From contig NZ_JAHXBG010000001.1 in NCBI RefSeq assembly GCF_020103725.1, forward strand, positions 62,001 through 126,000: a DNA stretch of 64,000 nt. Reading direction: 5' to 3'. Of the stretch, positions 9,527 to 58,583 are shown piece by piece. Made by a program: the position numbers and the translations under genes. The notes below the pieces were generated by a model. That model was not told the origin of the DNA. It was given only the letters and a program-made list of their open reading frames with translations, and did not search any database. Source of the DNA: Hyalangium gracile. Lineage in GTDB: Bacteria; Myxococcota; Myxococcia; Myxococcales; Myxococcaceae. How positions within the stretch are numbered: position 1 is the first letter of the stretch; the number at the start of each line of letters is the position of its first letter.

Positions 9527-9687
9527 GGCGGGCTCCATACCACGCAGGCGCGGATCAGGCCCGCGGTTGGCTCGCCCGATGGAAGGGGCGTGTATTCTTC
9601 TGTAAGCCCGCGCACCTGGCTCCATCACAAGCACCTGCCGTGAGCTGGCGATCGTCTGCTCCCCGGCTCCGGCATAGGGTTGCGCCC

Positions 9688-35363: not shown

Positions 35364-35440
35364 CGGCGGCGCAAGATAGCAAACAGACGCGTGAGATCCG
35401 CCTGGTTGCTGGCTGCTCGTGCTAGGCTTGCACGCTCTCC

Positions 35441-36466
35441 ATGCCCCCCCGCAAGGCGAAGCCGAAGAAAGCGCGTGCCCCGGCGCAGCCCGCGGCACCC
35501 GCGAGTGAGCCCGTGCCTCCGGCCCGCGCCTCGCGGCGCCGCGCCAAGAAGACCGTGGTCATCCTCTCGCGCAAGCGCTCCTTGTACTCCACACGCCGAC
35601 TGGTGGAGGCCATCAAGAAGCGCGGGCACCGTCCCCTGGTGCTGGACACGCTACGCTGCAGCATGATTCTGGCCAAGGGCCAGCCTCGGATGATGTACCG
35701 AGGGGTGGAGATTCGCGGCGTGGACGTGGTGATTCCCCGCATCGGCGCCTCCATCACCGCCTACGGGCTGGCCGTCGTCACCCACTTCGACATGATGGGC
35801 GTGCCGGTGGTGAACGCCGCGCAGTCCATCGCGCGCAGCCGGGACAAGCTGCGGTGTCTGCAGTACCTGTCACGGGCAGGGTTGGACATTCCACGCACGG
35901 TGATGGCGCACGACCGGAGCAACGTGCGCAAGCTGGTGGAGGAGGTGGGCGGGCTGCCGCTCATCATCAAGCTCATCCGGGGCACCCAGGGCGTCGGGGT
36001 GATGATTGCCCACACGCTGTCCGAGGTGCAGACCATCGTGGACACCTTCTGGGACCTGGGGCAGGAGATCGTCCTCCAGGAGTTCGTCGCCGAGAGCAAG
36101 GGGAAGGACGTGCGCGCGCTCGTGGTGGGCGAGCGGGTGGTGGGGGCGATGCGGCGGCAGGCGAAGAAGGAGGGCGAGTTCCGCTCCAACATCCACCGGG
36201 GCGGCGAGGGTCAACCCATCCAGCTGCCGCCCGCATATATCGAGGCGGCGGTGACGGCGGCGCGCATCATCGGCCTGGGCATCGCCGGGGTGGACATGCT
36301 GGAGGGCAACGAGGGGCCCCGGCTGATGGAAATCAACTCCAGCCCGGGCTTCGAGGGCCTGGAGGCGGCTACCCGTCAGGACATCGCCGGGGAGATGATT
36401 GACTACGCGCTGGCCTTCGCCGAGAGCAGACAGGCGGCCGAGCGGAGCCAGCGCCGGGTCAGTTGA
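35441..36466 (+). CDS. RimK-like ATP-grasp ligase
   Basis: 341 residues. A basic N-terminal tail (about 38 residues, rich in Lys/Arg/Ala/Pro) precedes a full RimK-type ATP-grasp domain: [62 protein letters not shown], and the metal-binding [14 protein letters not shown]. RimK adds glutamates to the C terminus of ribosomal protein S6; related enzymes ligate other amino acids to peptides or proteins. The substrate here is not shown by context. ATG 35441. Divergent from the FHA activator with 77 bases between. No small precursor-like gene is adjacent. Confidence 0.88.
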
Positions 36467-45754: not shown

Positions 45755-46336
45755 ATGCCGGCGAACAAGGCTGATCTTCTGGCTCGCCTCACGGCCGTTC
45801 ATCCCGGGGACAACGCCCTGGGGCTGTTCTTCACGACGGTGTTCCACCTGGTCGAGCAGCAGGCCGGGCCCGCGGCGCTGACGAAGCTGCGCACGGGCGA
45901 GCTGGCGAAGGACTACTCCGAGCTGCGCATGTACCCGGTGAAGGACTTCCTCCACCTGCTCTTCAGCGTGGCGGATCTGCTCGAGCCGCGGCTGGGCTCT
46001 CCGGAGGCGGTGTTCCGCGCGTGTGGCGAGACCAGCGTCACCCGCTACAACTCGGGCCCGGGGCGCTTCCTGTTCAACGTGCTGGCCCGGGGCGACCCGC
46101 ACAAGCTCTTCTCCATGGCGCAGGTGGGCTACAACACGGCCGTCACCTACGGGCGCCGCGAGTACCAGGTCATCAGCCCCAAGTCCGGCGTGCTGCGCGC
46201 CAACGGGGACATGATCCCTCCGGCATACCACGAGGGCATCCTCATCGGCTCGCTGAAGCTGCTCAACGTGCAGGGCCGGGCGCGGGCGCGCGTGCAGGGC
46301 ATCGACCGCGTGGAGTACGACATCACCTGGAACTGA
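45755..46336 (+). CDS. DUF2378 family protein (myxobacterial)
   Basis: 193 residues, the usual size of this family, which is almost limited to myxobacteria and present in many copies per genome. Typical blocks: FFTTVFHLVEQQ, YPVKDFLHLLFSVADLLEP, SVTRYNSGPGRFLF and an H/P-rich C terminus with YHEGILIGSLKLL. The fold resembles a heme-NO-binding-like or V4R-like helical domain by general shape; function unknown. GAGGGTGATAC precedes ATG 45755. It supports the myxobacterial origin of the window. Confidence 0.9.
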   Translation: MPANKADLLARLTAVHPGDNALGLFFTTVFHLVEQQAGPAALTKLRTGELAKDYSELRMYPVKDFLHLLFSVADLLEPRLGSPEAVFRACGETSVTRYNSGPGRFLFNVLARGDPHKLFSMAQVGYNTAVTYGRREYQVISPKSGVLRANGDMIPPAYHEGILIGSLKLLNVQGRARARVQGIDRVEYDITWN

Positions 46337-46349
46337 GGCGGCGGGCCGT

Positions 46350-46365
46350 GCGCTGCTTCCAGCGC
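46350..46365 (+). terminator. Terminator-like hairpin
   Basis: Stem GCGCTG / CAGCGC with loop CTTC, between the convergent stops at 46336 and 46369. A second hairpin, AGCGCTCC/GGAGCGCT, overlaps it, so the two can form alternatively. Confidence 0.45.
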
Positions 46366-46368
46366 TCC

Positions 46369-47745
46369 TCACCAGGGAGCGCTCCGGTAGTCCTTGATGA
46401 AGTGGCCGTGGACCGGCTGCCCGCGGATTCCCTGCACGATGGGATCGTACAGACGCGCGGCGCCGTCCACGGAGTCCAGCGGCGGAGTGAAGCCGCCGGC
46501 CTCCATGCGCTCGCGCTTCTCGTGCGGGTTCTCGTTGGTGAACCAGCCCGTGTCCACGCTGTTCATGTAGATGCCGTCGCGCGCGTAGTCCGCCGCCGAG
46601 GTGCGCGTCATCATGTTGAGCGCCGCCTTGGCCATGTTGGTGTGCGGGTGGAAGACCGTCTTGCCCTCGCGCTGGAACTGCCCCTCCGCCGCGGAGACGT
46701 TGACGATGTAGCGGTCCGCCCACGGCGAGCGCAGCAGCAGCGGCTTGAGCCGGCTGTTGAGCAGGAACGGCGCCATGGCGTTGACGCACTGGACCTCGAG
46801 CAGCTCCACCGGGGGCACCTCGTCCAGGCGCAGCACCCAGCTGTTGCTCGGGCGCGGGTCCTCGAGGTTCCCGTCGGCGCGCTCCTTCAGGAATGCACCG
46901 AGCGGCTCCGGGGCCAGGGCTCCCTCCGGGAGGGCGAGCAGCCTCGAGTGGCGGGCGACTTCCGAGGGCAGCTCGCGCACCCGGCCGAGCGCGGCGGCGG
47001 GCAGGGTGCGCGCCAGCTCCTGTTCCCGCTGATGGAGCGCGGTGTCCTGCTCGGCGGTGGAGCGCAGCGTCTGGGCGGCGTTGTTGACGAGGATGTCCAG
47101 GTGCGACTCGGTGGCGAGCAGGTGCTCGGTGAAGGCGACCACGCCCGGCAGGAAGCGCAGATCCAGCCCGTGGAGGACGAGCCGCTCCCGCCACTGCTCG
47201 AAGTCGGGCTCCTGGGCGTAGCGCCGGGCGGCGTCTCGGGGGTAGCGCGAGAGGACATGGACGTGCGCCCCATCCCTCAGCAGCTTGAGCGCGAGCTGGA
47301 AGCCCACCTTCACCCGGCCTCCGGTGATCAGGGCGCGACGGCCCTCCAGGGAGACCCGCTGCGTGCGCTTGTCCTCGTGGAAGCGCGCGCACTCGGGACA
47401 GAGCGAGAGGTAGAAGGGGTGCAGCCGGGTATAGCGCCCCTTGCAGCCGTAGCAGTGGCGCGTGCGCAGGAGCTCCTGGGTGGAAGGCTCCACGGAGGCG
47501 GACAGGCTGCGCACGCCGGCCACCTCGCTCCGAGCGCTCGCGAGCGTCTCCATGAGAGAGCGGTCCGCCTGCCGGGAGGCCACGTCACGCTGACGGCGGC
47601 GGCGCTTCTTGGACTCGCGATGGACGTGCGAGGCGGCGTCCTCGACAGCGCAGCGGGTCGGATGATCGGCCGGGAGCTTCACGATGGCGCGCAGCACCGC
47701 GAGGCACCGGGCCACGTCCGCTTCCGTCGGCTCCTGTATGGCCAT
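46369..47745 (-). CDS. SDR-family protein with N-terminal zinc ribbon
   Basis: 458 residues. The first 130 residues are helical and basic and include a zinc ribbon (HCYGCKGRYTRLHPFY, LCPECARFH). Then a Rossmann SDR domain: ALITGGRVKVGFQLALKLL (cofactor loop), DILVNNAAQT, VNAMAPFLLNS and IVNVSAAEGQF. The usual catalytic YxxxK is not seen; the equivalent stretch is HPHTNMAKAALNMMT, with lysine kept but Thr in place of Tyr. So it may bind NAD(P) without classical dehydrogenase activity. AGGAGGG is 8 bases before ATG 47745. Two tRNA-like structures lie directly in its leader. Confidence 0.85.
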   Translation of the reverse strand: MAIQEPTEADVARCLAVLRAIVKLPADHPTRCAVEDAASHVHRESKKRRRRQRDVASRQADRSLMETLASARSEVAGVRSLSASVEPSTQELLRTRHCYGCKGRYTRLHPFYLSLCPECARFHEDKRTQRVSLEGRRALITGGRVKVGFQLALKLLRDGAHVHVLSRYPRDAARRYAQEPDFEQWRERLVLHGLDLRFLPGVVAFTEHLLATESHLDILVNNAAQTLRSTAEQDTALHQREQELARTLPAAALGRVRELPSEVARHSRLLALPEGALAPEPLGAFLKERADGNLEDPRPSNSWVLRLDEVPPVELLEVQCVNAMAPFLLNSRLKPLLLRSPWADRYIVNVSAAEGQFQREGKTVFHPHTNMAKAALNMMTRTSAADYARDGIYMNSVDTGWFTNENPHEKRERMEAGGFTPPLDSVDGAARLYDPIVQGIRGQPVHGHFIKDYRSAPW

Positions 47746-47762
47746 CCTCCAGCCCTCCTGAA

Positions 47763-47865
47763 GAAGCGCTCGGGGCAGAGACTGGCCGGATTCGAACCGG
47801 CGTCCTTCGGTATTATGAGTACCGACGCGTCGGCCACTGCGCTACAGCCCCTGCCCGAGCACTTC
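47763..47865 (-). ncRNA. tRNA-like element 1 with extended acceptor stem (CAU loop)
   Basis: A complete tRNA-like cloverleaf (47777-47851) enclosed by an outer inverted repeat. The minus RNA pairs 47865-47845 with 47784-47763: 21 bp, one bulge, three G-U pairs. T-arm loop TTCGAAT; anticodon-like loop CTCATAA (CAU); a 3-bp D-stem with GCG/CGC and loop AGTGGCCGA; variable loop AGGAC. The discriminator is U, no CCA is encoded, and the stem runs on past it, so this is not a normal tRNA end. It ends 17 bases before the SDR start codon. Confidence 0.65.
47777..47851 (-). tRNA. tRNA-like core, anticodon CAU (Met/Ile2 type)
   Basis: 74 bases plus discriminator. Acceptor 5' GGGGCTG pairs with CAGTCTC, including two G-U pairs. 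The anticodon stem is 5-6 bp (TCGGTA/TACCGA) around CTCATAA, the same loop as elongator tRNA-Met and tRNA-Ile2. The T-stem GCCGG/CCGGC is perfect. Oddities: U73 instead of A73 and continuation of the stem beyond position 73. A tRNA finder would probably call it tRNA-Met, but function in translation is doubtful. Confidence 0.55.
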
Positions 47866-47905
47866 CTGGCTACCGCCTCGACAGGGGAAGCGCAACGGGG
47901 GGAGT

Positions 47906-47995
47906 GCCTGGGCGGAAACCGACGGGATTCGAACCCGTGTCCTCCTGATTAGCAGTCAGGCGCGTCGGCCACTGCGCTACGACTCCCGCCCAGGC
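47906..47995 (-). ncRNA. tRNA-like element 2 with extended acceptor stem (GCU loop)
   Basis: The minus RNA pairs 47995-47980 with 47921-47906: 16 continuous base pairs, three of them G-U, closing a tRNA-like fold. The D-arm (TAGCGCAGTGGCCGACGCG), variable loop AGGAC and T-loop TTCGAAT are the same as in element 1, so the two are paralogues about 40 bases apart. The anticodon-like loop is CTGCTAA (GCU, Ser), yet the variable arm is short, unlike any true tRNA-Ser. Confidence 0.65.
47914..47986 (-). tRNA. tRNA-like core, anticodon GCU (Ser type, short variable arm)
   Basis: Acceptor GGAGTCG pairs with CGGTTTC with three G-U pairs; anticodon stem CCTGA/TCAGG; T-stem ACGGG/CCCGT; discriminator C; no encoded CCA. 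The GCU anticodon predicts Ser, but the 5-base variable loop and C73 do not fit a seryl-tRNA (normally a long arm and G73). Best seen as the inner part of the extended element 47906-47995. Confidence 0.55.
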
Positions 47996-48084
47996 TCCTT
48001 CTCATTACCGCCTCGGAGTGCCGAGCGCAAAGCCCGGTGCAGCACGACGCCCGTCTCCTTCTCCAGAACCGCTGCCGAGCCCCG

Positions 48085-48384
48085 CTACCTTCGTTGTCGA
48101 AGGAACCGCTCGATCCGCTCGACCGCCAGCTCCATCTTCCGCCGGGCCGAAGCGTTCGCCGAATGGATGGAGATGCGCGGAGGGACGAAGCCGCGTGTCG
48201 CCACTGCCTCTTCGATCCAGCACAGGACGTCGTACCCCGTGCCGTGGAGATCGTCTCCCAGGTCGTGATCGAGGCTGATGTCCGTCACCTGGCCGGTCTG
48301 CAGCAGCGCGATGGCATCCTCCGGCCACCTCGCCGCCACCCATCCGGCGGGGGTCGCCCGCTCATCGTCGAGGTAGACCTTCAT
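48085..48384 (-). CDS. Cyclic-phosphate processing receiver-domain protein
   Basis: 99 residues. Single receiver-like domain of the cpRec type: MKVYLDDERATPAGW, then SLDHDLGDD, GYDVLCWIEE and a C-terminal helix with ISIHSANASARRKME. The HDLGDD motif replaces the usual phospho-acceptor pattern; such proteins are predicted to act on cyclic-phosphate ends of RNA or nucleotides. Starts with ATG at 48384, overlapping by 4 bases a 38-codon frame. Reads the same way as the tRNA-like elements just downstream, an intriguing match given the predicted RNA-end role. Confidence 0.85.
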   Translation of the reverse strand: MKVYLDDERATPAGWVAARWPEDAIALLQTGQVTDISLDHDLGDDLHGTGYDVLCWIEEAVATRGFVPPRISIHSANASARRKMELAVERIERFLRQRR

Positions 48385-48497
48385 GTCCTCGCACCAGGAA
48401 AGCGCACGTGGAGCTCCGTGCGGAGGCGCTCGAAGGTCGGGAAGGGATTCGCGAAGAAGCCCTCTCTCAAAAGGTCGACGTCCGCGGCTCCGCTCAT
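48381..48497 (-). CDS. Possible 38-residue coupled peptide
   Basis: An ATG at 48497 opens 38 codons (MSGAADVDLLREG ... LHVRFPGART). The stop TGA overlaps the ATG of the cpRec gene (ATGA), the usual sign of translational coupling. No strong ribosome site (CACGGGGCGG upstream). The FFANPFPTFERLRTELH segment could be an amphipathic helix. It may instead be the end of a decayed longer gene, as the frame is open further up inside the LysR gene. Function unknown. Confidence 0.4.
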   Translation of the reverse strand: MSGAADVDLLREGFFANPFPTFERLRTELHVRFPGART

Positions 48498-48534
48498 GGT
48501 CCGCCCCGTGAAGAGGTGGGCTGCGGCGGCGATG

Positions 48535-49470
48535 CTAGCGCAATCCCCCTCGGGGGCGGACCTCCCTGGGGGGTGTCGTGTCCATCTTGGACGACAGGGG
48601 GTGGGTGGCCACGAAGTCGAGCAGGAAGTCCCGAAAGGCCGCCACCTTCCTCGGGACACGCTCGGCGCGCGGGTGCACGAAGAAGAGGCTCCCGCCATGC
48701 TGCGCCCACCTTGGCAGCACCCGGATGAGCCGTCCCGAGGTGACATCCTGTCGCGCGAGGAAGGTCGGCAGGACCCCCATGCCCAGCCCCTCGCGGATCG
48801 ACCGGTGCGCGAACATCAGGTCGTCCGTCACCAGCCGGGGCTTGCTCGGCGCGCTCAGCGGAGGTGGCACCTTCATCCGGTGGACCAGCACCCAGTCATG
48901 CGTGCCGGTGTCCTCGGGGGCTCGCGGCTGGCCCCTGCGTGCCACGTAGGTCGGCGCGGCATACAGGCCCATGTCCACCGCGCTCACCTTCCGGGCCACC
49001 AGCGTCGAGTCCGGGAGCGGGCCCGACACCCGGAGCGCGACATCGAACCCCTCGGCCACGAGGTCGACCCGCCTGTTCGCCAGTCGGATGTCCAGGGTGA
49101 CCGCGGGGTAGCGCGCCGAGAACCGGGCGGAGAGCATCGGCAGGAAGGTGAGGCCCATGTCCACCGGCGCGGTGACCCTCAGCTCGCCCGAGGGCTCCGC
49201 CTCCTGCTCCGGGAGGCTCCCCGTCAGCGCTCGCAGCGAGGCGACGAGCGGGCGCGCCCTCTCATAGAAGGCGGTGCCCGCGGTGGTGAGCGCCACGCTG
49301 CGGGTGGTGCGGTGGAACAGCTGCACGCCCAGCGAGGCCTCGAGCCCCGCCACGCCCCGGCTCACCGAGGACTTCGGCAGCCCCAGCTTCCGGGCAGCCG
49401 CTGACATGCTCGCCGTCTCCGCGACCGTCACGAAGAGGGGCAGGAGGTTCAGGTCCGGCGTTCCAGGCAT
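48535..49470 (-). CDS. LysR-family transcriptional regulator
   Basis: 311 residues. N-terminal winged HTH (LPLFVTVAETASMSAAARKLGLPKSSVSRGVAGLEASLGVQLF) with the usual HRTTRSVALT wing, then a type-2 periplasmic-binding-like effector domain (GELRVTAPVDMG ... RVDLVAEGFDVALRV ... SIREGLGMGVLPTFLA). The pattern is close to CrgA/DsdC-type regulators of aromatic or stress genes. The ATG is at 49470. It is divergent from the LigB-type dioxygenase gene (90 bases between starts), so it likely controls that gene, the common LysR arrangement. Confidence 0.93.
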   Translation of the reverse strand: MPGTPDLNLLPLFVTVAETASMSAAARKLGLPKSSVSRGVAGLEASLGVQLFHRTTRSVALTTAGTAFYERARPLVASLRALTGSLPEQEAEPSGELRVTAPVDMGLTFLPMLSARFSARYPAVTLDIRLANRRVDLVAEGFDVALRVSGPLPDSTLVARKVSAVDMGLYAAPTYVARRGQPRAPEDTGTHDWVLVHRMKVPPPLSAPSKPRLVTDDLMFAHRSIREGLGMGVLPTFLARQDVTSGRLIRVLPRWAQHGGSLFFVHPRAERVPRKVAAFRDFLLDFVATHPLSSKMDTTPPREVRPRGGLR

Positions 49471-49560
49471 GGAACGCAGTTATGCCAGAAGTCCCCCTAG
49501 TGCGAGCCCTGCAACACCTGCATGATCCACGGGACTGAGCATCCGTACCGGAGACGCACC

Positions 49561-50493
49561 ATGAGCAACGAGCACGATGAAGGACTCACGCGCCGCCAGG
49601 CCATCGGCGTGGGGCTCGTGGGCGCCGCGAGCCTCGCCGCGCTGCCCGCCGCCACGGCCGCCTCATCGGACGAGCGCCGCAAAGCTGGCTCCCAGGAGCG
49701 GATGCCCGTCGTCTTCATGCCGCACGGCGGTGGCCCCTGGCCCTTCGTCGAGCTCGGCTTCGACAAGAACGACTGCGACGCGCTCGCCGACTACCTGCGC
49801 TCGGTGCGCGCGCTGCCGAAGACGCCGCCCAAGGCGCTGCTCGTCGTCTCCGCGCACTGGGAGGAGCCGGTGCCCACGGTCATGACGGCCGAGCGCCCGC
49901 CCATGTACTACGACTACTACGGCTTCCCGCCCGAGTCCTACCAGCTCACCTGGCCCGCCCCGGGTCAGCCGAAGCTCGCGGCGCGGGTGCAGGAGCTGCT
50001 CGGCGCGGCGGGCTTCCAGACGGCCATGGACTCCAAGCGCGGCTTCGACCATGGGACGTTCGTCCCCCTCAAGCTCACCTACCCCAACGCGGACGTGCCC
50101 ACGGTGCAGCTGTCGCTCAAGCAGGGGCTCGATCCGGAGGAGCACCTGGCGATGGGCCGCGCGCTCGCACCGCTGCGAGACGAGGGGGTGTTCATCGTCG
50201 GCAGCGGCATGACGTTCCACAACCTGCGCGCCTTCCGCGACCCGCGCGCCCCCGAGATCGCCGAGGCCTTCGATGGCTGGCTGCGCGAGGCCGCCACGCT
50301 CGACGCCCCGGAGCGCGACCGGCGGCTCACGCAGTGGTCTCGCGCCCCCGCGGCGCGGCTGGCCCACCCGCGCGAGGAGCACCTGCTGCCCCTGATGGTC
50401 ATCGCCGGCGCGGCGGGGGCCGATCGGGGCACCACGGCCTACAGCGGGAAGTTCATGGGCGTGCGGCTCTCCGCGTACCACTTCGGCGCATAG
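49561..50493 (+). CDS. LigB/DODA-type extradiol dioxygenase, Tat-exported
   Basis: 310 residues. N-terminal Tat-like signal: LTRRQAIGVGLVGAASLAALPAATA. The enzyme domain shows the DODA-type iron ligands and partners: FMPHGGGPWPF, VVSAHWEEPVP, FDHGTFVPL and HPREEHLLPLMV. It should open a catechol-type ring (or cleave DOPA-like substrates) with Fe(II) or Zn. Export by Tat is unusual for the family but common for annotated homologues with TRRQ motifs. ATG 49561. The neighbour LysR regulator is divergent; the next gene (graspetide precursor) is convergent. Confidence 0.87.
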   Translation: MSNEHDEGLTRRQAIGVGLVGAASLAALPAATAASSDERRKAGSQERMPVVFMPHGGGPWPFVELGFDKNDCDALADYLRSVRALPKTPPKALLVVSAHWEEPVPTVMTAERPPMYYDYYGFPPESYQLTWPAPGQPKLAARVQELLGAAGFQTAMDSKRGFDHGTFVPLKLTYPNADVPTVQLSLKQGLDPEEHLAMGRALAPLRDEGVFIVGSGMTFHNLRAFRDPRAPEIAEAFDGWLREAATLDAPERDRRLTQWSRAPAARLAHPREEHLLPLMVIAGAAGADRGTTAYSGKFMGVRLSAYHFGA

Positions 50494-50537
50494 AAGCGCG
50501 CCGCATGTAGGACACTCTCCTCCACCAGGAGCCCGGC

Positions 50538-50735
50538 TCAGCGGCCGTGCTTGCCGCCCTCTTCGGCCAGCCCCATCGTGGTGACGGCCTTCTTGGGGCC
50601 ATGCGTCCCGCTCTCCTCGCCCACCGCCATGCTGGTGATGGGCTTGGGCTTGGGCTTGCCGTGCGCGGGCTTCTCCTCGAGCTCGACGGGCAGCTCGTAC
50701 CGGATGAAGGACGAGCCTCTTCGGTGAGCCGTCAT
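50538..50735 (-). CDS. Graspetide precursor (plesiocin-like, two core repeats)
   Basis: 65 residues. Leader 1-33 (MTAHRRGSSFIRYELPVELE, then a Lys/Pro-rich linker). Then two related units: ITSMAVGEESGTHG (T34 S35 ... E40 E41) and VTTMGLAEEGGKHG (T52 T53 ... E58 E59). Both fit the T(T/S)xxxxEE core of plesiocin-type graspetides, where Thr/Ser hydroxyls are joined by ester bonds to the Glu side chains. GGAGG precedes ATG 50735. The ATP-grasp ligase gene lies divergently 110 bases away. Too short for standard gene finders, but the repeat and the partner make it convincing. The product is likely a protease inhibitor-like peptide, by analogy only. Confidence 0.75.
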   Translation of the reverse strand: MTAHRRGSSFIRYELPVELEEKPAHGKPKPKPITSMAVGEESGTHGPKKAVTTMGLAEEGGKHGR

Positions 50736-50845
50736 GTTTCCTCCAGAAGGGGTGGGGGCTGGGTTGCCACCCACCCATCTATACGCGGAAGGTGAGTCCT
50801 GCTTGCCTGCGAGGGAAGTCTTCATCCTCGAGGGGGGGAGGGACC

Positions 50846-51796
50846 ATGCGAATCGGCATCTTCGGAGACAGCGGCGATCCACAGTGCGCCGCGGTGGCTC
50901 GCGAGGCGGCGGCGCTCGGCGCGGACACGCTGTACGTGGACAGCCGCGCGCTCGACGAGGGCCTCCCCCTCTCCATGCTGGACGGGCAGACCTTCTACCT
51001 GGGCAAGCCGGTGGATGACGTGAGGGGCTTCTACGTGCGCTCCGTCCCCGCGCCCTACGTGCCGGCGATGCGCAAGGACGACACGCTGGTGCTCTACGAG
51101 GACTGGTTCACCACCTTCACCCAGACGCGCGAGCGGGCGTCCTACTTCCTGGCGTGGCTGCTGCAGCTGTCGCACCGGGGCGCCACGCTGGTCAACGGCC
51201 CGCACGCGGCCAGCGTGATGCAGTTCAAGCCCTACCAGCTCCACGCGCTGCGCAGCCTGGGGGCCAAGGTGCCGCGCACGCTCATCTCGAATGATCCGGC
51301 GGCCATCCGCGCCTTCCACGCGGAGGTGAAGGACGTCATCTACAAGCCGGTGCTGGGCGGCGCCATCACCCGGGCGCTGGACGCCGAGGCGCTGGAGCGG
51401 CTGGACGCGGTGACGGCCTCGCCGGTCATCTTCCAGGAGCGCGTGCCGGGGGACGACTTGCGGGTGATGCTGGTGGGCGATGAGCTCGTCTCGTGCGTGG
51501 CCATCGAGACGCCCAGCCAGCACCTCGACTTCCGGGACGACCCCGTCTACAGCAGCGGCGAGGCGCAGTACCGCGAGGTGGTGCTGCCCGAGCCCGTCCA
51601 GCGCTTCTGCCGCGCGGCGGCCAAGGCGTGCGGGCTGGTGTTCGCGGGCATCGACCTCAAGCAGCGCGGCAAGGACTTCGTGTTCCTGGAGCTGAACAGC
51701 TCGCCCATCTACATGGACGTGGAGCAGAAGCTGGGCCACCGCATCAGCCGGGCCATCGCGCGCCGGGTGGTAGAGGGCGCGCGCGCCGTCCGGTAG
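50846..51796 (+). CDS. ATP-grasp macrocyclase for the graspetide
   Basis: 316 residues. RimK/graspetide-type ATP-grasp: MRIGIFGDSGDPQ, a middle domain with RASYFLAWLLQLSHRG and VIYKPVLGGAITRAL, the ATP-binding VIFQERVPGDDLRVMLVGDELV, and the metal site FVFLELNSSPIYMD. These enzymes phosphorylate a Glu/Asp side chain and let a Ser/Thr hydroxyl or Lys amine attack it, forming the ring. It starts after GGGGGGGAGGG at ATG 50846 and is divergent from the small precursor gene. No transporter or protease is adjacent. Confidence 0.85.
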   Translation: MRIGIFGDSGDPQCAAVAREAAALGADTLYVDSRALDEGLPLSMLDGQTFYLGKPVDDVRGFYVRSVPAPYVPAMRKDDTLVLYEDWFTTFTQTRERASYFLAWLLQLSHRGATLVNGPHAASVMQFKPYQLHALRSLGAKVPRTLISNDPAAIRAFHAEVKDVIYKPVLGGAITRALDAEALERLDAVTASPVIFQERVPGDDLRVMLVGDELVSCVAIETPSQHLDFRDDPVYSSGEAQYREVVLPEPVQRFCRAAAKACGLVFAGIDLKQRGKDFVFLELNSSPIYMDVEQKLGHRISRAIARRVVEGARAVR

Positions 51797-52086
51797 GCCA
51801 ACATGCTTCAGGGAGGAAGCCCGGGGTGCAGCGAGTGGTGCAGCCGTGACTGGAGGCACAGCTCGAGCGCCGCAGGCACGGAGCCACGGAACTGGGAGCC
51901 ACAGGTCGCGGGTCCCTCGCTGCGGGGCGGGTCCCCCCGTTGGGACGGGTCCGCCCGCCCCGGCGTCCCGCTCTCCCCTGTTACCTTCCCCGTCTACCGC
52001 TGGCGATACGTCTCAACCTGAGCGGTGCCCTGAGCAGGTCCGGAACCCCGTGTCCAGTGCACTCTCCTGCCGGGCGCACTTTGCCC
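51797..52086. other. Gene-free stretch before repeat copy B
   Basis: About 290 bases after the macrocyclase stop with no supportable gene on either strand. A weak GCTTC/GAAGC hairpin follows the stop at 51804-51820. Together with repeat B it separates the graspetide locus from the decayed genes. Confidence 0.5.
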
Positions 52087-52202
52087 TTACTGGTCTGCTT
52101 GTCATACCAGTTGGTACCGGTCCGCGGACAGGGCGCCTCCCTGGCCAGACCGCTCCCCTGACGCAGGCGCCTCCCTCTCGTGTGCAGGAACTCCTTCAGA
52201 CC
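52087..52202 (+). repeat. Dispersed intergenic repeat, copy B
   Basis: Same element as 4565-4684 and, reversed, 62994-63112: TGGTCTGCTTGTCATACC, then GGTACCGGTCCGC and GCGCCTCCCTGGCC. It lacks the first three bases of the GAACTGGT arm (reads TTACTGGT). Ends next to the broken kinase. Confidence 0.75.
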
Positions 52203-52205
52203 TGA

Positions 52206-52556
52206 TCACGCGGTCGCCGATGACGAGCCGAGCGCGAAGAGATCCGAGCGTGAATCCACCCGGCCGCCCAGGAGCATTTCCGGCCGATGAGATGGCTCAG
52301 GTCGATCGCCCGGTGGACGATGCCCAGCGGATTGCCCTTTTCCTCCTTCGCCGTGTGCGCGTGCTCAAGGGCGCTCGCGACCGCCGCGCCGACGTACAGC
52401 GTGAAGAAGGGCGAGAACCAGCGGTCGAGTCCGATAGCGAGCCCCATCAGGTCACCCAGATCCTGCCCCTGCGGAGGGCCCGCTCTGCCCGATGGCCTTC
52501 GCGGCAGCGGCAGACCAAGAGCCAGTGGCTCGTCGAGCCAACACAGGAGCCGGTAG
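52206..52556 (-). pseudogene. Ser/Thr kinase remnant
   Basis: A fragment that keeps kinase pieces: VASALEHAHTAKEEKGNPLGIVHRAIDLSHL, the region before and at the catalytic loop. The part with the DFG loop and activation segment is missing. After a frame change, LLGGRVDSRSDLFALG follows, which matches the later kinase helix (DSRSDLFALG). It then stops. So an internal deletion plus a frameshift broke the gene. Upstream, YRLLCWLDEPLALGLPLP remains open but is not recognisable. Not expected to make an active kinase. Confidence 0.7.
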
Positions 52557-52596
52557 CGGCAACACCTTCAACCCTTCCCGCTGAGGCCTGTCCCCT

Positions 52597-53259
52597 TCAG
52601 AGCCACGTCTTGATGTCGGCGTACTTGTCGAGGAGGTCGAGCATCTCCGCCTTGATGAATGTCGCCGCCGAGGCTCCAGTCGCCACCTCGATGAACCTCG
52701 CGAAGACACTCGCGAAGGGAGAGCGGCAGATGGTGCGCTGCACCTCGAGCGCACGCCGCCAGTCGCCTTCCTCGCACGCCTCGTCATAGTGGCGCAGCAT
52801 CGCCGGAATCCGGATCCATGCGTCGCGGCGGCCTTTCTCCAGGATGTCGCGGTGAAGGCCGAAGACAGCGATGCTCTGTTCGCCCTTCGGCGTCCGAGCC
52901 ACGTACTCACCGGTCCTCAGCGAGAGCGCGAGATGAGTCCTCGGGTCCTCCACGGTGGGATCGATGAGCAGCGGAGCCCCTGCCTCATCACGCGGGAACT
53001 TCTCTCGCTTGTGGTTGCTGTTACAGCCGCTGCATGCGAGCAGGTAGTTGGTCCAGGAGAACGCCTTCTCGGGGTACTCGGACTTGGGCCAGAAGTGTTC
53101 GATGTCCGTGCCCGCGCTGTCCTCGCAGTACATGTTGCGACCAGCGATAACCGTCCAGCCCGCGTAGCGTCCATCTGGCCGACGCATGTCCAGCTCGATG
53201 CCCAGGTCTCCCGAGCGGAACCCTCGGATGTTCTCGATCTGGATCCTGCTCAGGTACAT
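52597..53259 (-). CDS. Chimeric AAA-ATPase N terminus / HNH nuclease remnant (Septu-like)
   Basis: 220 residues. Residues 1-41 (MYLSRIQIENIRGFRSGDLG ... WTVIAGRN) are the start of a SMC/RecF-like AAA ATPase, cut exactly where the Walker A loop (normally GRNGSGK) would begin. The next residues, MYCEDSAGTDIEHFWPKSEYP, are the inside of an HNH nuclease, with the second zinc pair (ACSGCNSNHK). The first cysteine of its CxxC pair is replaced by the Asn from GRN. So a deletion has fused the two genes of an ATPase/HNH pair of the Septu (PtuA/PtuB) kind. GAGG precedes ATG 53259. Likely non-functional, although the HNH core is intact. Confidence 0.7.
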   Translation of the reverse strand: MYLSRIQIENIRGFRSGDLGIELDMRRPDGRYAGWTVIAGRNMYCEDSAGTDIEHFWPKSEYPEKAFSWTNYLLACSGCNSNHKREKFPRDEAGAPLLIDPTVEDPRTHLALSLRTGEYVARTPKGEQSIAVFGLHRDILEKGRRDAWIRIPAMLRHYDEACEEGDWRRALEVQRTICRSPFASVFARFIEVATGASAATFIKAEMLDLLDKYADIKTWL

Positions 53260-53287
53260 GCACGCCTCATCTTGAATAAGCCCGCAG

Positions 53288-55210
53288 CTACAGCTCCACC
53301 TGCGTGCCCAGCTCCACCACGCGGTTGGGCGGAATCCGGAAGAACGCCGTGGCGCTGCGCGCGTTGCGGCTCATCCACGCGAACAGCGACTCACGCCACA
53401 TCGCCATCCCCGGCTTCTTCGACGGAATCAGCGTCTCGCGCCCCAGGAAGAACGAGGTGCTCATCAGCTGGAACTGCAGCCCCTGCTCCCGTCCCCGCTT
53501 GAGGATGTCCGGGATGCTCGGGTTCTCCATGAAGCCGTAGCGCGCGATCAGCCGCACGAAGCCCAGCTCCAGCGGCTGCACCTCCACCCGCTCCTCTGGC
53601 GCCACGTGCGGCACGTCCTCCGACAGGATGGTCAGCAGCACCACCTGCTCGTGCAGCACCTTGTTGTGCTTCAGGTTGTGCAAGAGCGCCGGCGGCGAGC
53701 CCTCCGGGTTGCCCGTCATGAACACCGCCGTGCCCGGCACCCGCACCGGCGCGTGCTCTCCCTTGAAGCTCTCCAGCAGGTCCTTCAGGTCCATGCTGGC
53801 CGCGCGCAGCTTGGCCGCCAGAATCTCGCGCCCCCGCTTCCACGTCGTCATCAGCGTGAAGATGCTCACCGCCAGCACCAGCGGGAACCAGCCGCCCTCG
53901 GGGATCTTCACCGCGTTGGCGCTGAAGAACGCCAGCTCCACCCCCAGGAACAGCGACAGCACCGGGATGGCCACCGCCCGCCGCACGTTCCAGCGCTCGC
54001 GCGCCACCACGTACGCCATCATCGTCGTCATCAGCATGGCGGTGGACACCGCGATGCCGTACGCCCCCGCCAGCGCGCTCGAGTTGCGGAAACCCAGCAC
54101 CAGCAGCACCACGCCCAGCAGCAGCAGCAGGTTGAGCCCCGGCAGGTAGATCTGCCCCTTCTCCTCCGCCGAGGTGTGCACCACCTCCATGCGCGGGCAG
54201 TAGCCCAGCTGCATCGCCTGCCGCGTGTTCGAGAACGCCCCCGAGATGACCGCCTGCGAGGCGATGCTCGCCGCGCCCGCCGCCAGCACCACCATCGGGT
54301 AGAGCGCCCACGACGGCGCCAGCAGGAAGAACGGGTTGCGCGCCGCCTCCGGCGCCCTCAAGAGCAGCGCCCCCTGCCCCAGGTAGTTGAGCATCAGCGA
54401 GGGCAGCACCAGCGCGAACCACGCCAGGCGGATGGGCCCCCGGCCGAAGTGGCCCATGTCCGTGTAGAGCGACTCGCCGCCCGTCACCACCAGGAACACC
54501 CCGCCCAGCACCAGGAAGCCATGCAGCCCGTTGCGCATGAAGAAGGACACGCCCTCCACCGGCGACAGCGCCCAAAGCACCGACGGGTTGTGCACCAGCT
54601 CCTTCACCCCCAGCACCGCCAGCGCCACGAACCACACGCACATGAAGGGGCCGAACACGCTGCCGATGCCCCCCGTGCCGTGCCGCTGCACCAGGAACAA
54701 CCCCAGCAGGATGAGCAGCACGATGGGCAGGATGTAGGGCTCGAAGATGGGCGTGGCCACGCTCAGGCCCTCCACCGCGCTGAGCACCGAGATGGCCGGG
54801 GTGATGATGCCGTCGCCGTACAGCAGCGACGCCCCGAAGATGCCCATGATCATCAGCAGCGGCCGGGTCCTCGACGCCGGGCGGCTGCCCCGCGCGCGCT
54901 GCCCCACCAGGGCCATCAGCGCCAGCACGCCGCCCTCGCCCCGGTTGTCCGCCCTTAGTACGAACACCAAGTACTTCACGGAGACAGTGATGATGAGCGC
55001 CCAGAAGATGAGCGACAGCACCCCCAGCACGTTCTCATGCGAGGGGTGGATGCCGTGCGGCCCCGTGAAGCACTCGCGCAGCGCGTACAGGGGGCTGGTA
55101 CCGATGTCGCCGTAGACGACGCCCACCGCTCCCAGCGCCAGCAGCGCCGTGCGTTTGTAGGGACTTGGCCCCTCGGCCGAGGGGGCAGGGGCTTCCGTGG
55201 TCGCGTTCAC
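53288..55210 (-). CDS. kup: Kup-type potassium uptake protein
   Basis: 640 residues, 12 predicted membrane segments in the first 430 followed by a cytoplasmic C-terminal domain. Signatures: GVVYGDIGTSPLYAL, FVLRADNRGEGGVLALMAL, GDGIITPAISVLSAVEGL and QYCPRMEVVHT-like (LGYCPRMEVVHTS). KUP proteins bring in K+ by proton symport. GTG start at 55210. It is divergent from a large histidine kinase; no shared operator is obvious in the 211 bases between them. Confidence 0.96.
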   Translation of the reverse strand: MNATTEAPAPSAEGPSPYKRTALLALGAVGVVYGDIGTSPLYALRECFTGPHGIHPSHENVLGVLSLIFWALIITVSVKYLVFVLRADNRGEGGVLALMALVGQRARGSRPASRTRPLLMIMGIFGASLLYGDGIITPAISVLSAVEGLSVATPIFEPYILPIVLLILLGLFLVQRHGTGGIGSVFGPFMCVWFVALAVLGVKELVHNPSVLWALSPVEGVSFFMRNGLHGFLVLGGVFLVVTGGESLYTDMGHFGRGPIRLAWFALVLPSLMLNYLGQGALLLRAPEAARNPFFLLAPSWALYPMVVLAAGAASIASQAVISGAFSNTRQAMQLGYCPRMEVVHTSAEEKGQIYLPGLNLLLLLGVVLLVLGFRNSSALAGAYGIAVSTAMLMTTMMAYVVARERWNVRRAVAIPVLSLFLGVELAFFSANAVKIPEGGWFPLVLAVSIFTLMTTWKRGREILAAKLRAASMDLKDLLESFKGEHAPVRVPGTAVFMTGNPEGSPPALLHNLKHNKVLHEQVVLLTILSEDVPHVAPEERVEVQPLELGFVRLIARYGFMENPSIPDILKRGREQGLQFQLMSTSFFLGRETLIPSKKPGMAMWRESLFAWMSRNARSATAFFRIPPNRVVELGTQVEL

Positions 55211-55421
55211 GGGCCCCGCTTTAGCTGAACCCCCAGCGGGAGCAACCCGTACCGCATGCCGCTGTCACTCACTTTCCAGCCCCAGCGGAAGTCTGACTGG
55301 GAACGCGTGCTGACAGGTAAGCCCATGTAGGTATGTCAACCGGTGCACTACTGGAGCTCAATCACCTTTGCTCATTCCGTTGTTCACATGTGCGATCGCC
55401 TTTTTGGGGGCCCACTTCGGA

Positions 55422-58400
55422 ATGGTTTCAGCCAGTTCCAGTCCGACACAGCAATACGCATCCAGTCCACTCGGGCTCGAGGAGCGGCTGGCATGGCTCG
55501 CCGAGGCTTCGCGGGTGCTCGCGGACGCCAGCCTCGAGGCCTTCGCGGTCCTCGAGCGCATCTGCGCGCTGGTGGTGCCCCTGCTGGGCCAGGCCTGCGG
55601 CGTGCGCCTGCTCTCCGAGGACGGCCAGTGGCTCAACCCCGTGGCCATGGCCCACGCGGACCCGTCCTCCCGGGACGCCTTCCTGGCGCACACCTCCGAC
55701 GCCCAGCGCGCGGACGAGGGCCTGTCCGGCATCGTCATGAAGAAGGGCGAGTCGCTGCTGCTGTCGGCCCTGCCTCCCGAGGTGCTGCGCCGCGCCGTGG
55801 CCCCCTCGCTGCGCGCGGCCGCCGAGCGCTTCCCCTTCAGCGACGTGCTCGTGCTGCCGCTGCGTGCCCGCGGGCGCACGCTCGGCACCCTCACCGTGGC
55901 CCGCGGCCTGGGCGTGCGCCCCTTCGAGGACACCGAGCGGCTGCTGCTCCAGGAGGTGGCGGACCGGGCGGCCGTGGTGCTGGACGTGGCGCGCGCCTAT
56001 GCGGCCGAGCGTCAGGCCCGCCATGACGCCGAGGTGGCGGCCAACCGCATCCTGCGCATGCAGCGCGCCACCGCGGCGCTCTCCGAGGCGGTGACGCCCG
56101 CGGACGTGGCCGGCGTGGCGATGCGCGAGGCCATGGATGCGCTGAGCGCCGACCAGGGCGTCTTCGCCGTGGCCAGCGAGGATCCGTCCTGGCTGGAGCT
56201 GCTCGGCAGCCGCAACCTGCCCCCCGGCGGCCAGGAGCGCCTGGCCCGCTTCCCGAGCAGCGCGCCGCTGTCGACGGCGGAGGCCTACCGCACCGGCGAG
56301 GCCCTGTGGATGGAGACGCACGAGGAGTTCGCGGCGCGCTACCCCGCCACCGCCCAGCGGCCGGACATCCCCACCAAGGCGCTGATCAGCCTGCCGCTGC
56401 TGTCTCGGGGGCGGGCGCTGGGCGCGCTCACGCTGGGCTTCCTGGCGCCACGGCCCGTCTCCGAGAGCGAGCGCGCCTTCTTGAAGGACCTGGTGGGGCA
56501 GACGGCCCAGGCGCTGGAGCGGGCGCGGCTCTACGCCGCCGAGCAGCAGGCGCGCGCCGACGCCCAGCGCGCCGCCGAGCGCACCACCCGCCTCCAGGCC
56601 GTCACCGCCGAGCTGTCCCAGGCGCTCACCGCCACGCGGGTGTCGGAAATCGTCGTGGACCATGGCGTGGCGGCCGTGGGGGCGCGCAGCGGCGGGCTGT
56701 GGCTCATCGAGCCGGGCGGCGCCTACGCGCGGCTGGTGCGCACCTTCGGCTATCCGCAGGAGGTGGTGGAGCGCTTCCAGCGCCTGCCGCTGGTGATGGG
56801 CGCGCCGCTCATGGACGCGCTGCGCGAGGGCCGTCCGGTGTGGATGGAGACGCCCGAGGCGCAGGGCGCTCCGGGCTTCCCCCAGACGGCGTCCATGGCG
56901 TGCCTGCCGCTGAAGGCCGAGGGGCGCACGCTGGGGGCGCTGGTGCTGGGCTTCACCGAGCCCCGCCGCTTCGACGCGGACGAGCGCGCCTTCCTGGAGC
57001 TGCTCGTCCACCCCGCCGCGGAGGCGCTGGCGCGAGCGCGGCTGCTGGAGCAGCAGCAGCAGGCCCAGGCCGCGGTGCGCGAGGCCCACCAGACACTCTC
57101 CGCCGTCATCCAGGCCTCCCCCGCCGCCATCCTCCTCATGGACCGGGATGGCTCGGTGCGGCTGTGGAACTCCGCCGCCGAGCGCATCTTCGGGTGGACG
57201 GCGGAGGAGGCCATCGGCCGCCCGCTGGTGGCGGTGCCCGAGAGCAAGCAGGCGGAGTTCCGCGAGAACCTGGAGCGCGTGGTCCGGGGCGAGCCGCTCA
57301 TGGGAGTGGAGACGCGGCGCCAGCGCAAGGACGGCACGCTCATCGACGTGGCGCTGTGGGCCTCCGCGGTGCGCCAGGCCAGCGGCCAGGTGCAGTGCGT
57401 CTACGTCGTCACGGACATCACCGAGCGCAAGCGCGCGGAGGACTCCCAGCGCTTCCTGGCGCGCGCGGGCAGCGAGCTGGCCAGCAGCCTGGATGACGAG
57501 GTGACGCTCGAGCGCGTGGCCCGCCTGGCCGTGCCGTCCTGGGCGGACACCTGCAGCGTCCATCTGCTGGAGGAGGGACGGCAGCTGCGGTGCGTGGCCT
57601 CGGCGCCCTCGGGGGCCGCGTCCCAGCCTCCCCTCGCGGAGGCCGAGGCGGAGGCCATCCACCGCATCATCGCCTCGTGCCTGCCGGAGCTGCGCAAGGA
57701 GTCCACGCCGCGCGCCCAGGCCACGCTGCGCGTGCCGCTGGTGGTGCGCGGCCAGGCGCTGGGCGTGCTGTCGCTCGCCACCACGCAGCGGCTCTATGAC
57801 ACGCGGGACCTGACGCTCGCGCAGGAGCTGGCGCGGCAGGCGGCGTTCGCCATCGACAACGCCCGGCTCTACCACGAGGCCCAGCAGGCCGTGCGGCTGC
57901 GCGAGGAGTTCCTCTCCATCGCCAGCCACGAGCTGAAGACGCCCATCAGCGCGCTCCAGCTCCAGGTGCAGAGCCTGCTGTCCACGCTGGCCCGCTCGCC
58001 CTCGGGGCCCTCTCCGGAGCGGCTGCGGCGCAGCCTGGAGACGGTGGACCGGCAGGTGCGGCGGCAGACGCAGCTCATCAACGACTTGCTGGACGTGTCG
58101 CGCATCTCGGCCGGGCGGCTGCAGCTGCAGCCGGAGCGCATGGAGCTGTCGGCGCTGGCGCGCGAGGTGGCCGAGCGCTTCGAGCCGGAGCTGGCCCGCG
58201 CGGGCTCGCCGCTGCTGCTCCAGCTGTCCGCGGAGACGATGGGGCAGTGGGACAAGCTGCGCCTGGATCAGGTGCTGACGAACCTGCTGTCCAACGCGGT
58301 GAAGTACGGCCGGGGCAACCCCATCCAGCTGGTGACGGAGACGACGAGCGACAGGGTGCGGCTGTCGGTGAGGGACGGCGGCATCGGCATCGCGGCGGAG

Positions 58401-58583
58401 GACCTGGCGCGCCTGTTCAACCGCTTCGAGCGGGCGGTGTCCGAGCGCAACTACGGCGGCTTCGGCCTGGGGCTGTGGATCTCCCGGCAGATCGTCGAGG
58501 CGATGGGCGGGCGCATCCAGGTGACGAGCCAGCCAGGCGTGGGCTCGACCTTCACGGTGGAGCTGCCTCGCCAGCGGGACTGA
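55422..58583 (+). CDS. Multi-GAF/PAS sensor histidine kinase
   Basis: 1053 residues with no membrane segment. Domain order by sequence: GAF (about 25-190), GAF (205-370), GAF (385-540), PAS with PAC (560-685: MDRDGSVRLWNSAAERIFGWT), a fourth GAF (685-825), then HisKA with phospho-acceptor His 836 (IASHELKTPISAL) and HATPase_c (NLLSNAVKYG, DGGIGIAAEDL, GGFGLGLW). No receiver domain is attached and no response regulator is adjacent, so the partner is elsewhere. A TTG at 55368 could add 18 residues, but ATG 55422 is preferred. A cytoplasmic sensor of small molecules is likely; the ligands are unknown. Confidence 0.93.
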   Translation: MVSASSSPTQQYASSPLGLEERLAWLAEASRVLADASLEAFAVLERICALVVPLLGQACGVRLLSEDGQWLNPVAMAHADPSSRDAFLAHTSDAQRADEGLSGIVMKKGESLLLSALPPEVLRRAVAPSLRAAAERFPFSDVLVLPLRARGRTLGTLTVARGLGVRPFEDTERLLLQEVADRAAVVLDVARAYAAERQARHDAEVAANRILRMQRATAALSEAVTPADVAGVAMREAMDALSADQGVFAVASEDPSWLELLGSRNLPPGGQERLARFPSSAPLSTAEAYRTGEALWMETHEEFAARYPATAQRPDIPTKALISLPLLSRGRALGALTLGFLAPRPVSESERAFLKDLVGQTAQALERARLYAAEQQARADAQRAAERTTRLQAVTAELSQALTATRVSEIVVDHGVAAVGARSGGLWLIEPGGAYARLVRTFGYPQEVVERFQRLPLVMGAPLMDALREGRPVWMETPEAQGAPGFPQTASMACLPLKAEGRTLGALVLGFTEPRRFDADERAFLELLVHPAAEALARARLLEQQQQAQAAVREAHQTLSAVIQASPAAILLMDRDGSVRLWNSAAERIFGWTAEEAIGRPLVAVPESKQAEFRENLERVVRGEPLMGVETRRQRKDGTLIDVALWASAVRQASGQVQCVYVVTDITERKRAEDSQRFLARAGSELASSLDDEVTLERVARLAVPSWADTCSVHLLEEGRQLRCVASAPSGAASQPPLAEAEAEAIHRIIASCLPELRKESTPRAQATLRVPLVVRGQALGVLSLATTQRLYDTRDLTLAQELARQAAFAIDNARLYHEAQQAVRLREEFLSIASHELKTPISALQLQVQSLLSTLARSPSGPSPERLRRSLETVDRQVRRQTQLINDLLDVSRISAGRLQLQPERMELSALAREVAERFEPELARAGSPLLLQLSAETMGQWDKLRLDQVLTNLLSNAVKYGRGNPIQLVTETTSDRVRLSVRDGGIGIAAEDLARLFNRFERAVSERNYGGFGLGLWISRQIVEAMGGRIQVTSQPGVGSTFTVELPRQRD

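What the first reader, a model, noticed from the sequence alone, without database searches (positions are those of the whole stretch)
50538..51796. Plesiocin-like graspetide locus: 65-aa precursor with two TTxxxxEE-type cores and an ATP-grasp ligase
The short minus-strand gene encodes two units, ITSMAVGEESGTHG and VTTMGLAEEGGKHG, each holding T(T/S)xxxxEE. Established knowledge: plesiocin, from the myxobacterium Plesiocystis, has TTxxxxEE cores in which the hydroxyls are joined to the Glu side chains by an ATP-grasp enzyme, giving hairpin-like bicycles. The divergent ATP-grasp gene 110 bases away has the right metal site (ELNSSP). Inference: this is a two-repeat member, and the cargo may be an extracellular protease inhibitor. 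The S instead of T in core 1, the divergent layout and the lack of transporter genes make it unlike the type locus.
Basis: partly seen in the sequence, partly recalled or inferred. Interest (0 to 1): 0.9.

Follow-up and report, generated by a model that had tools for sequence, protein, structure and literature searches.

The report
Split plesiocin-like peptide system in myxobacteria
A myxobacterium carries an enzyme gene and a small peptide gene that together look set to make a ring-stapled, protease-inhibitor-like peptide, and a second peptide gene far away in the same genome carries the same enzyme tag, which suggests that one enzyme staples both.

Summary
A 65-aa minus-strand gene with cores TSMAVGEE and TTMGLAEE faces, across 110 bases, an ATP-grasp gene whose best sequence and fold match is PsnB, the plesiocin cyclase. 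Of 193 related genomes searched, 26 have this ligase clade and 24 of those also give a precursor hit; the two others have a truncated ligase and one with an in-frame stop. The divergent layout is normal for the clade (23 of 24 local precursors). Core number runs from 1 to 18.

(1) The ligase belongs to a sister clade of PsnB, outside the plesiocin group by a published threshold. (2) The same genome holds a second precursor about 153 kb away with no ligase beside it: same SFIxYELP leader motif, a GG site, three TTxxxxEE cores. Seven of 193 genomes have it, all with this ligase.

In 196 cores the scaffold T-T-x-A-x-G-E-E is nearly fixed, while loop position 3 changes between Leu/Met, Lys/Arg, Gln, Glu and Ala, often within one precursor. 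I read this as hairpin serine-protease inhibitors of mixed specificity. Cross-links, modification in trans and inhibition are inferred, not shown. New variant of a known kind.

The parts
50538..50735 (-). local precursor gene, 65 aa, ATG start, stop TGA included
   Evidence: relatives; pN/pS
50688..50708 (-). leader motif FIRYELP, shared in kind with relatives and with the distant second precursor (FIQYELP)
50613..50636 (-). core 1, TSMAVGEE (Ser at the second donor position)
50559..50582 (-). core 2, TTMGLAEE (departs from the clade consensus TTxAxGEE at positions 4 and 6)
50740..50744 (-). ribosome-binding site GGAGG of the precursor gene
   Evidence: read from the sequence
50736..50845 (.). 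110-base divergent intergenic region; in an alignment of 6 loci (window included) AGACTTC is kept in 6 of 6 and TATAGA in 3 of 6; no sigma-70 consensus hit
50846..51796 (+). ATP-grasp graspetide synthetase, 316 aa, PsnB-like fold, active-site motif ELNSSP
50837..50842 (+). probable ribosome-binding site GGAGGG of the ligase gene
   Evidence: read from the sequence

Best explanation
The ATP-grasp enzyme binds the leader motif (S/P)FIxYELP and joins the two Thr/Ser hydroxyls of each T(T/S)xxxxEE core to the two Glu side chains as esters, giving small hairpins: two on the local precursor and, in trans, three on a second precursor about 153 kb away that has the same leader motif followed by a double-glycine site. 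After leader removal and export the hairpins act as serine-protease inhibitors, loop position 3 being the specificity (P1-like) residue. Shown here: the genes, homology, predicted fold, conservation, co-occurrence and pattern of selection. Inferred: ester formation, modification in trans, cleavage and export, protease inhibition.
For: Ligase: PsnB best by phmmer (E 2e-40), Foldseek (E 8.6e-25) and VIA-align 2 (Z 28.3; model pLDDT 79.5). Co-occurrence: 24 of 26 ligase carriers have a precursor hit against 2 of 167 other genomes; of the 2 carriers without, G009 keeps only residues 157-314 (first half not found in its contig) and G097 has an in-frame TGA and beside it a frame with TTMALGEE and TTLAVGKE. 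Second precursor: own genome, 7 of 193 genomes, all 7 with this ligase, none within the 8-10 kb on either side; in G000, G006, G020 and G059 the other listed ATP-grasp matches are at most 39% identical. Selection: in 13 arrays, 978 core pairs, positions 1, 2, 4, 6, 7, 8 differ almost only synonymously (0.28-0.44 synonymous, 0-0.07 not), position 3 mostly by amino acid (0.66 to 0.05). Double-glycine site VQGG/VRGG in all 7 second precursors; three long C39-peptidase frames exist in the genome, on other contigs.
Against: No mass or activity data. The window's own core 2 (TTMGLAEE) departs from consensus, and pN/pS in the 4 comparisons with the window's precursor is 0.72-0.75, against 0.18-0.53 in the 6 among its relatives, so the local precursor may be loosening. 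A microviridin-type ligase is also present in all 7 carriers of the second precursor, so presence alone does not single out the clade enzyme. G002, G004 and G005 have the ligase but not the second precursor. That position 3 is P1 rests on recalled work on plesiocin and on the variation pattern. Co-occurrence counts and core pairs are not independent.
Confidence: 0.66

Rival explanations
1. The local two-core precursor is on its way out in this lineage, and the distant three-core precursor is now the ligase's real substrate.
For: Core 1 has Ser and core 2 has GLA in place of AxG; pN/pS against relatives is raised (0.72-0.75); G002a has a single core, its second being absent.
Against: The reading frame, leader motif, ribosome-binding site and all donor and acceptor residues are intact; G004 and G005 also have an off-consensus core 2 (TTMSLREE) without having the second precursor.
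Confidence: 0.2
2. The second precursor is modified by the microviridin-type ligases of contig C13, not by the window's enzyme.
For: One ligase of that pair was sought and found in all 10 genomes tested, incl. all 7 carriers; the end of the second leader (LEQVQGG) resembles the microviridin-type leader of the same genome (DLEQASGG).
Against: The recognition part is FIQYELP as in the local precursors, not PFFARLLE; the cores are TTxxxxEE, not of the YPSDSDE type; G002, G004 and G005 have that ligase but not the second precursor.
Confidence: 0.1
3. The product is a structural or adhesive multivalent peptide, not an inhibitor; loop position 3 simply drifts.
For: Arrays of up to 18 cores with Pro/Lys/Gly-rich linkers; corallotide, a large repeat graspetide of Corallococcus, is reported to share biophysical properties with collagen (PMC13097080, passages).
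Against: The core motif is that of plesiocin, a serine protease inhibitor whose potency rises with the number of motifs (PMC13097080 introduction passage); position 3 is the site that changes charge while most neighbours are fixed.
Confidence: 0.2
4. The small ORF and its repeats are a chance reading frame beside an unrelated ATP-grasp gene.
For: The gene is short, without a Pfam or NCBIfam match.
Against: Such a frame lies beside the ligase in 24 loci; scaffold codons differ almost only synonymously; 0 of 40 shuffles.
Confidence: 0.01

Closest known systems
Plesiocin / PsnA2-PsnB (graspetide group 2)
   Different: Ligases of this clade about 33-37% identical to PsnB, alignment score at most 46, while a separate myxobacterial clade reaches 87; no NHLM transporter seen next door; leader FIxYELP; second precursor elsewhere in the genome
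Graspetide groups 34 and 35 of PMC13097080 (2026)
   Same: Long precursors with repeated motifs; group 35 loci hold only synthetase and precursor (section 7 read)
   Different: Member sequences are in supplements that could not be read, so identity with this clade is untested; no precursor away from its synthetase is mentioned in the parts read
Microviridins and the AMdnA multi-core precursor
   Same: ATP-grasp side-chain esters, multi-core precursor processed distributively (PMC5934393, passages); GG leader end
   Different: Other core and leader (PFFARFL), two ligases; the same genome has a separate locus of that type
Corallotide (group 15, Corallococcus)
   Same: Large myxobacterial repeat graspetide
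   Different: Lys isopeptide KxxxD motif plus an oxygenase (PMC13097080, passages); no such motif or gene noted here

Membership tests
Graspetide (RiPP class) | ATP-grasp ligase of the graspetide synthetase family | tested here: met
   PsnB, MdnC, AMdnB, MdnB and PruB are the top structural matches, RimK lower; TIGR04187 matched below its cut-off (112.8 of 350 bits)
Graspetide (RiPP class) | Adjacent short precursor with leader plus Thr/Ser donors and Glu/Asp acceptors | tested here: met
Graspetide (RiPP class) | Side-chain ester or amide cross-links in the product | not testable with these tools
   needs expression and mass spectrometry
Plesiocin-type graspetide (group 2) | TTxxxxEE core motif, repeated | tested here: met
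   two cores in the window (one T-S), 3 in the second precursor, 1-18 in relatives
Plesiocin-type graspetide (group 2) | Ligase linked to PsnB at the network threshold (alignment score 70) | tested here: not met
   direct links, scores computed by me from BLASTP bits: window clade to PsnB at most 46; PsnB-like clade 87; threshold from PMC13097080; links through unsampled intermediates cannot be excluded
Plesiocin-type graspetide (group 2) | Neighbouring NHLM-type transporter (high co-occurrence, not absolute) | tested here: not met
   window locus only: none among the frames scanned at 45755-58580; C39 peptidase hits lie on other contigs; relatives' loci were not scanned for transporters
Plesiocin-type graspetide (group 2) | Same leader recognition sequence as PsnA2 | tested here: inconclusive
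   PsnA2 letters were not obtained; several precursors near the PsnB-like clade carry LFVxDL-like leaders
Graspetide groups 34/35 (PMC13097080) | Membership of the published sequence network groups | not testable with these tools
   supplementary sequence sets not available
Microviridin | PFFARFL leader and TxKxPSD core (core motif recalled), two ligases | tested here: not met
   the genome's own microviridin-type locus is separate

The most novel reading that the evidence does not exclude
A trans-split graspetide system: one plesiocin-type ligase modifies two precursors at distant loci that share its leader motif but differ in cleavage signal and number of hairpins, the second leader having a double-glycine end like that of the microviridin-type precursor. 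Across the clade the hairpins form naturally multi-specific protease-inhibitor sets (1 to 18 cores), in which the separate three-core gene goes with short local precursors and long arrays do without it.
Probability: 0.5. Interest if true: 0.68.

Novelty: new variant of a known kind. Interest (0 to 1): 0.55.

Why it matters
[quoted passage not shown] Precursors such as the second gene here, and the longest arrays, could escape that. If the ligase acts in trans, products are undercounted. The clade also offers a natural ladder of 1 to 18 cores with changing loop residues, which lets one test how hairpin number and mix set potency and specificity, and why predatory bacteria keep such peptides.

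Tried and rejected
Rejected: chance frame. No match in the plasmid collection, no sigma-70 consensus promoter or intrinsic terminator. Conserved neighbour genes as partners: in 19 loci, some reaching only 1.5 kb beyond the ligase, the window's neighbours recur only in the nearest relatives apart from weak histidine-kinase and LysR matches. Recovering PsnA2 from solved structures failed with four precursor queries. Two apparent extra precursors (G058 C303, G063 C224) start at contig ends and are most likely the broken-off far ends of the local arrays, so I did not count them as separate genes. G002 carries a second clade ligase (66%) with no TTxxxxEE frame within about 8-9 kb: unexplained. A similar split outside the family: G155 has a three-core frame on C33 and its 42% ligase on C129, with no motif found beside that ligase and no match to P0002 on C33 at E <= 0.001; not followed further.

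Rows dropped or flawed: the G013 local gene was taken from G033's locus because the proteins are identical, so its pairs are void (one search gives 4 of 153 bases different). Core counts use 24 local precursors; of 27 clade ligase loci, G002b, G009 and G091 gave none beside the ligase (G091's array, 11 cores by the strict pattern, sits on another contig, and is not in the counts); G036, G058 and G063 are cut by contig ends. In the tree two outgroup rows are the same gene, two PsnB-like rows are identical, and some deep long branches are unsure.

Papers: PMC8939145 abstract, section 5 and passages; PMC13097080 section 7 and passages; PMC12291112, PMC5934393, PMC9576775, PMC9484694, PMC9826346, PMC10373908 passages. 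Lee 2017, Lee C 2020 (engineered bifunctional plesiocin), Lee 2020, Ramesh 2021 and the PsnB structure paper were not read (looked for the 2020 bifunctionality paper and Ramesh 2021: not held; the others were not looked up); what I say of them is recalled.

Full report
What is there. The minus-strand gene at 50538-50735 encodes 65 aa with two cores, TSMAVGEE and TTMGLAEE, and a good ribosome-binding site. The ATP-grasp gene at 50846-51796 starts 110 bases away on the other strand. The only frame of 30 aa or more in the whole window with T[TS]xxxxEE holds both copies; 0 of 40 dinucleotide shuffles gave such a pair. The window is part of an 11.7-Mb genome in 81 contigs; the nearest named relative by this ligase is Hyalangium versicolor, 91%.

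The enzyme. By sequence the best solved relative is PsnB (7drm, E 2e-40; named as PsnB). A model built from ten sequences (mean pLDDT 79.5, pTM 0.78) matches PsnB first with Foldseek (E 8.6e-25) and with VIA-align 2 (Z 28.3, rmsd 2.7, 291 aligned); microviridin ligases follow at Z 25.9 and lower, RimK at 23.1. ELNSSP is invariant in the 10 sequences. A tree of 55 rows puts 25 ligases of the window's type in one clade (100/99) and 16 PsnB-like myxobacterial ligases in another (100/99). The PsnB fragment links to the second clade at alignment score up to 87 but to the window's clade at no more than 46; PMC13097080 draws its groups at 70 (section 7). So it works like plesiocin biosynthesis, but by that test it is not in the plesiocin group.

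The pair in other genomes. Of 193 related genomes searched (a phylum-wide request returned 195), 26 have a ligase of this clade (58% identity or more). A profile of the second precursor gives hits at E <= 0.001 in 26 genomes, 24 of them among the 26 ligase carriers and 2 of 167 others (Fisher p 4e-26, not corrected for shared descent). Of the two carriers without a hit, G009 keeps residues 157-314 only and its contig shows no first half, and G097 has an in-frame TGA (a sequencing error cannot be excluded) beside a frame reading TTMALGEE and TTLAVGKE. The two others, G155 and G166, have more distant ligases (42-44%). The precursor sits divergently beside the ligase in 23 of 24 local precursors; in G023 it is convergent downstream. 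In 19 loci compared, the window's neighbour genes recur only in the nearest relatives, so the unit that is kept is the two-gene pair.

Core number. The 24 local precursors hold 175 cores: 1 in four genomes of one genus (two named Archangium) and in G002a; 2 in the window and four near relatives, and in the decayed G097; 13-15 in four genomes of another genus; 5 to 18 in nine genomes of a third group, at least five of them MAGs (three counts are minima because contigs end there). On the tree the 1-, 2- and 13-15-core groups lie side by side, so the number has changed repeatedly.

A second precursor. A search of the own genome with the 65-aa peptide finds, about 153 kb away, MSTQSTRKSFIQYELPTKALEQVQGGKGKVTTLAVGEEGGTVTTTGVGEECCEPRITTFGLGEEAGTCT (E 5.9e-4): the same SFIxYELP motif, a double-glycine site, and three cores. 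It recurs in 7 of 193 genomes (G000, G006, G013, G020, G033, G047, G059), on another contig than the ligase or 92 kb to several Mb from it, with no ligase in the 18-20 kb around it (two spurious hits at E 0.23 and 0.75). F10 to P16 except one residue, the GG pair and all TT and EE residues are invariant in the seven. In the two comparisons of the own locus with another genus that lacks synteny only the gene itself aligns, 177 and 214 bases; nearer pairs share flanks. Mean pN/pS is 0.51 over 21 pairs. All seven have the clade ligase and local precursors of 1 or 2 cores; none of the 13 genomes with 5 or more local cores counted has it. G002, G004 and G005 have short local precursors and lack it. 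The PsnB-like clade is absent from five of the seven at E 1e-50, and in G000, G006, G020 and G059 the other listed ATP-grasp matches are at most 39% identical. A microviridin-type ligase is present in all seven, but the leader and core of that locus are of another kind. Hence the proposal that the window's enzyme acts on both precursors.

What selection keeps. In 196 cores (175 local, 21 second-precursor) positions 1, 2, 4, 6, 7 and 8 are nearly fixed as T, T, A, G, E, E. Position 3 is Leu 70, Met 58, Lys 42, Gln 11, Glu 6, Ala 4, Arg 3, Phe 1, Thr 1. Of 13 arrays with 5 or more cores counted, 12 mix charge classes at position 3, sometimes alternating (n+n+n+...); G052 does not; 4 of 7 second precursors do. 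Among 978 core pairs within arrays, scaffold positions differ in 28-44% of pairs synonymously and 0-7% otherwise; position 3 differs in 66% by amino acid and 5% synonymously; position 5 (mostly Val/Leu) is in between, 49% and 16%. Met has no synonymous codon, which lowers the synonymous share at position 3. Duplication of whole units explains part of the alternation, so the pairs are not independent. The pattern fits a fixed hairpin with a variable specificity residue; mere tolerance at position 3 would fit it too. That plesiocin inhibits serine proteases, more strongly with more motifs, is stated in PMC13097080 (passage); that it was made bifunctional I know from the title of Lee C 2020, seen in reference lists only.

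Cleavage and export. The local precursor of the window has no GG before its first core; the seven second precursors do. The genome has six Peptidase_C39 hits, three of them strong in frames of 745-763 aa on contigs C2, C22 and C23, none on the contigs of the window and second precursor (C1) or of the microviridin-type locus (C13); I did not scan them further. Which, if any, serves this system is open.

Novelty. Searches of the held library listed no paper on a graspetide precursor encoded away from its synthetase that I recognised, but subscription papers and all supplements were out of reach. PMC8939145 limited itself to first and second neighbours and says that trans-encoded links were not addressed. 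PMC13097080 notes long repeat precursors in groups 34 and 35, with only synthetase and precursor in group 35, which may be this clade. I therefore call it a new variant of a known kind.

Against my reading. No chemistry is shown. The window's own core 2 is off consensus and its precursor changes faster (pN/pS 0.72-0.75 against 0.18-0.53 among relatives). Three genomes placed in the same genus (G002, G004, G005) have the ligase without the second precursor, and G002 has a second clade ligase without a visible substrate.

Noticed in passing
G000:C1:265794-266003 (+), locus L068:1486-1695, outside the window: Second, three-core precursor without a ligase nearby; central to this report, but outside the coordinates given.
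   Followed up: yes
L063:7684-7902 (+) and 7935-10003 (+), own genome contig C13: Microviridin-type locus: 72-aa precursor with PFFARLLE leader, GG, and two YPSDSDE-type cores, followed by two ATP-grasp ligases; one of the ligases was sought and found in 10 of 10 genomes.
   Followed up: partly
L048-L055, L060-L062, L118-L129: PsnB-like clade (51-55% to PsnB) in 26 of 195 genomes, several with a single TTxxxxEE core and a leader such as LFVQDLARIEGK.
   Followed up: partly
L142 (G155:C33) and L047 (G155:C129): In another family a three-core frame (TTMAVGEE, TTPAIGEE, TTIAKGEE) lies on another contig than the genome's only strong ligase match, which has no motif beside it: perhaps a second split case.
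   Followed up: partly
L087 (G002:C370): A second clade ligase (66%) with no TTxxxxEE frame in about 8-9 kb on either side: its substrate is unknown.
   Followed up: partly
L073 (G194:C33): Repeats of TSQAVGEEDG in a long frame near a 42% ligase; part of the stretch is masked.
   Followed up: no
window 35426-36463 (+): A further ATP-grasp gene that looks RimK-like (my reading of the sequence), 27% to the ligase over residues 99-294.
   Followed up: no
window 49522-50493 (+): LigB / 4,5-DOPA-dioxygenase-like protein with an RR-type N-terminus (my reading) just downstream of the precursor's stop (Pfam LigB 1.8e-31); found next to the pair in H. versicolor, not in the other loci compared.
   Followed up: partly
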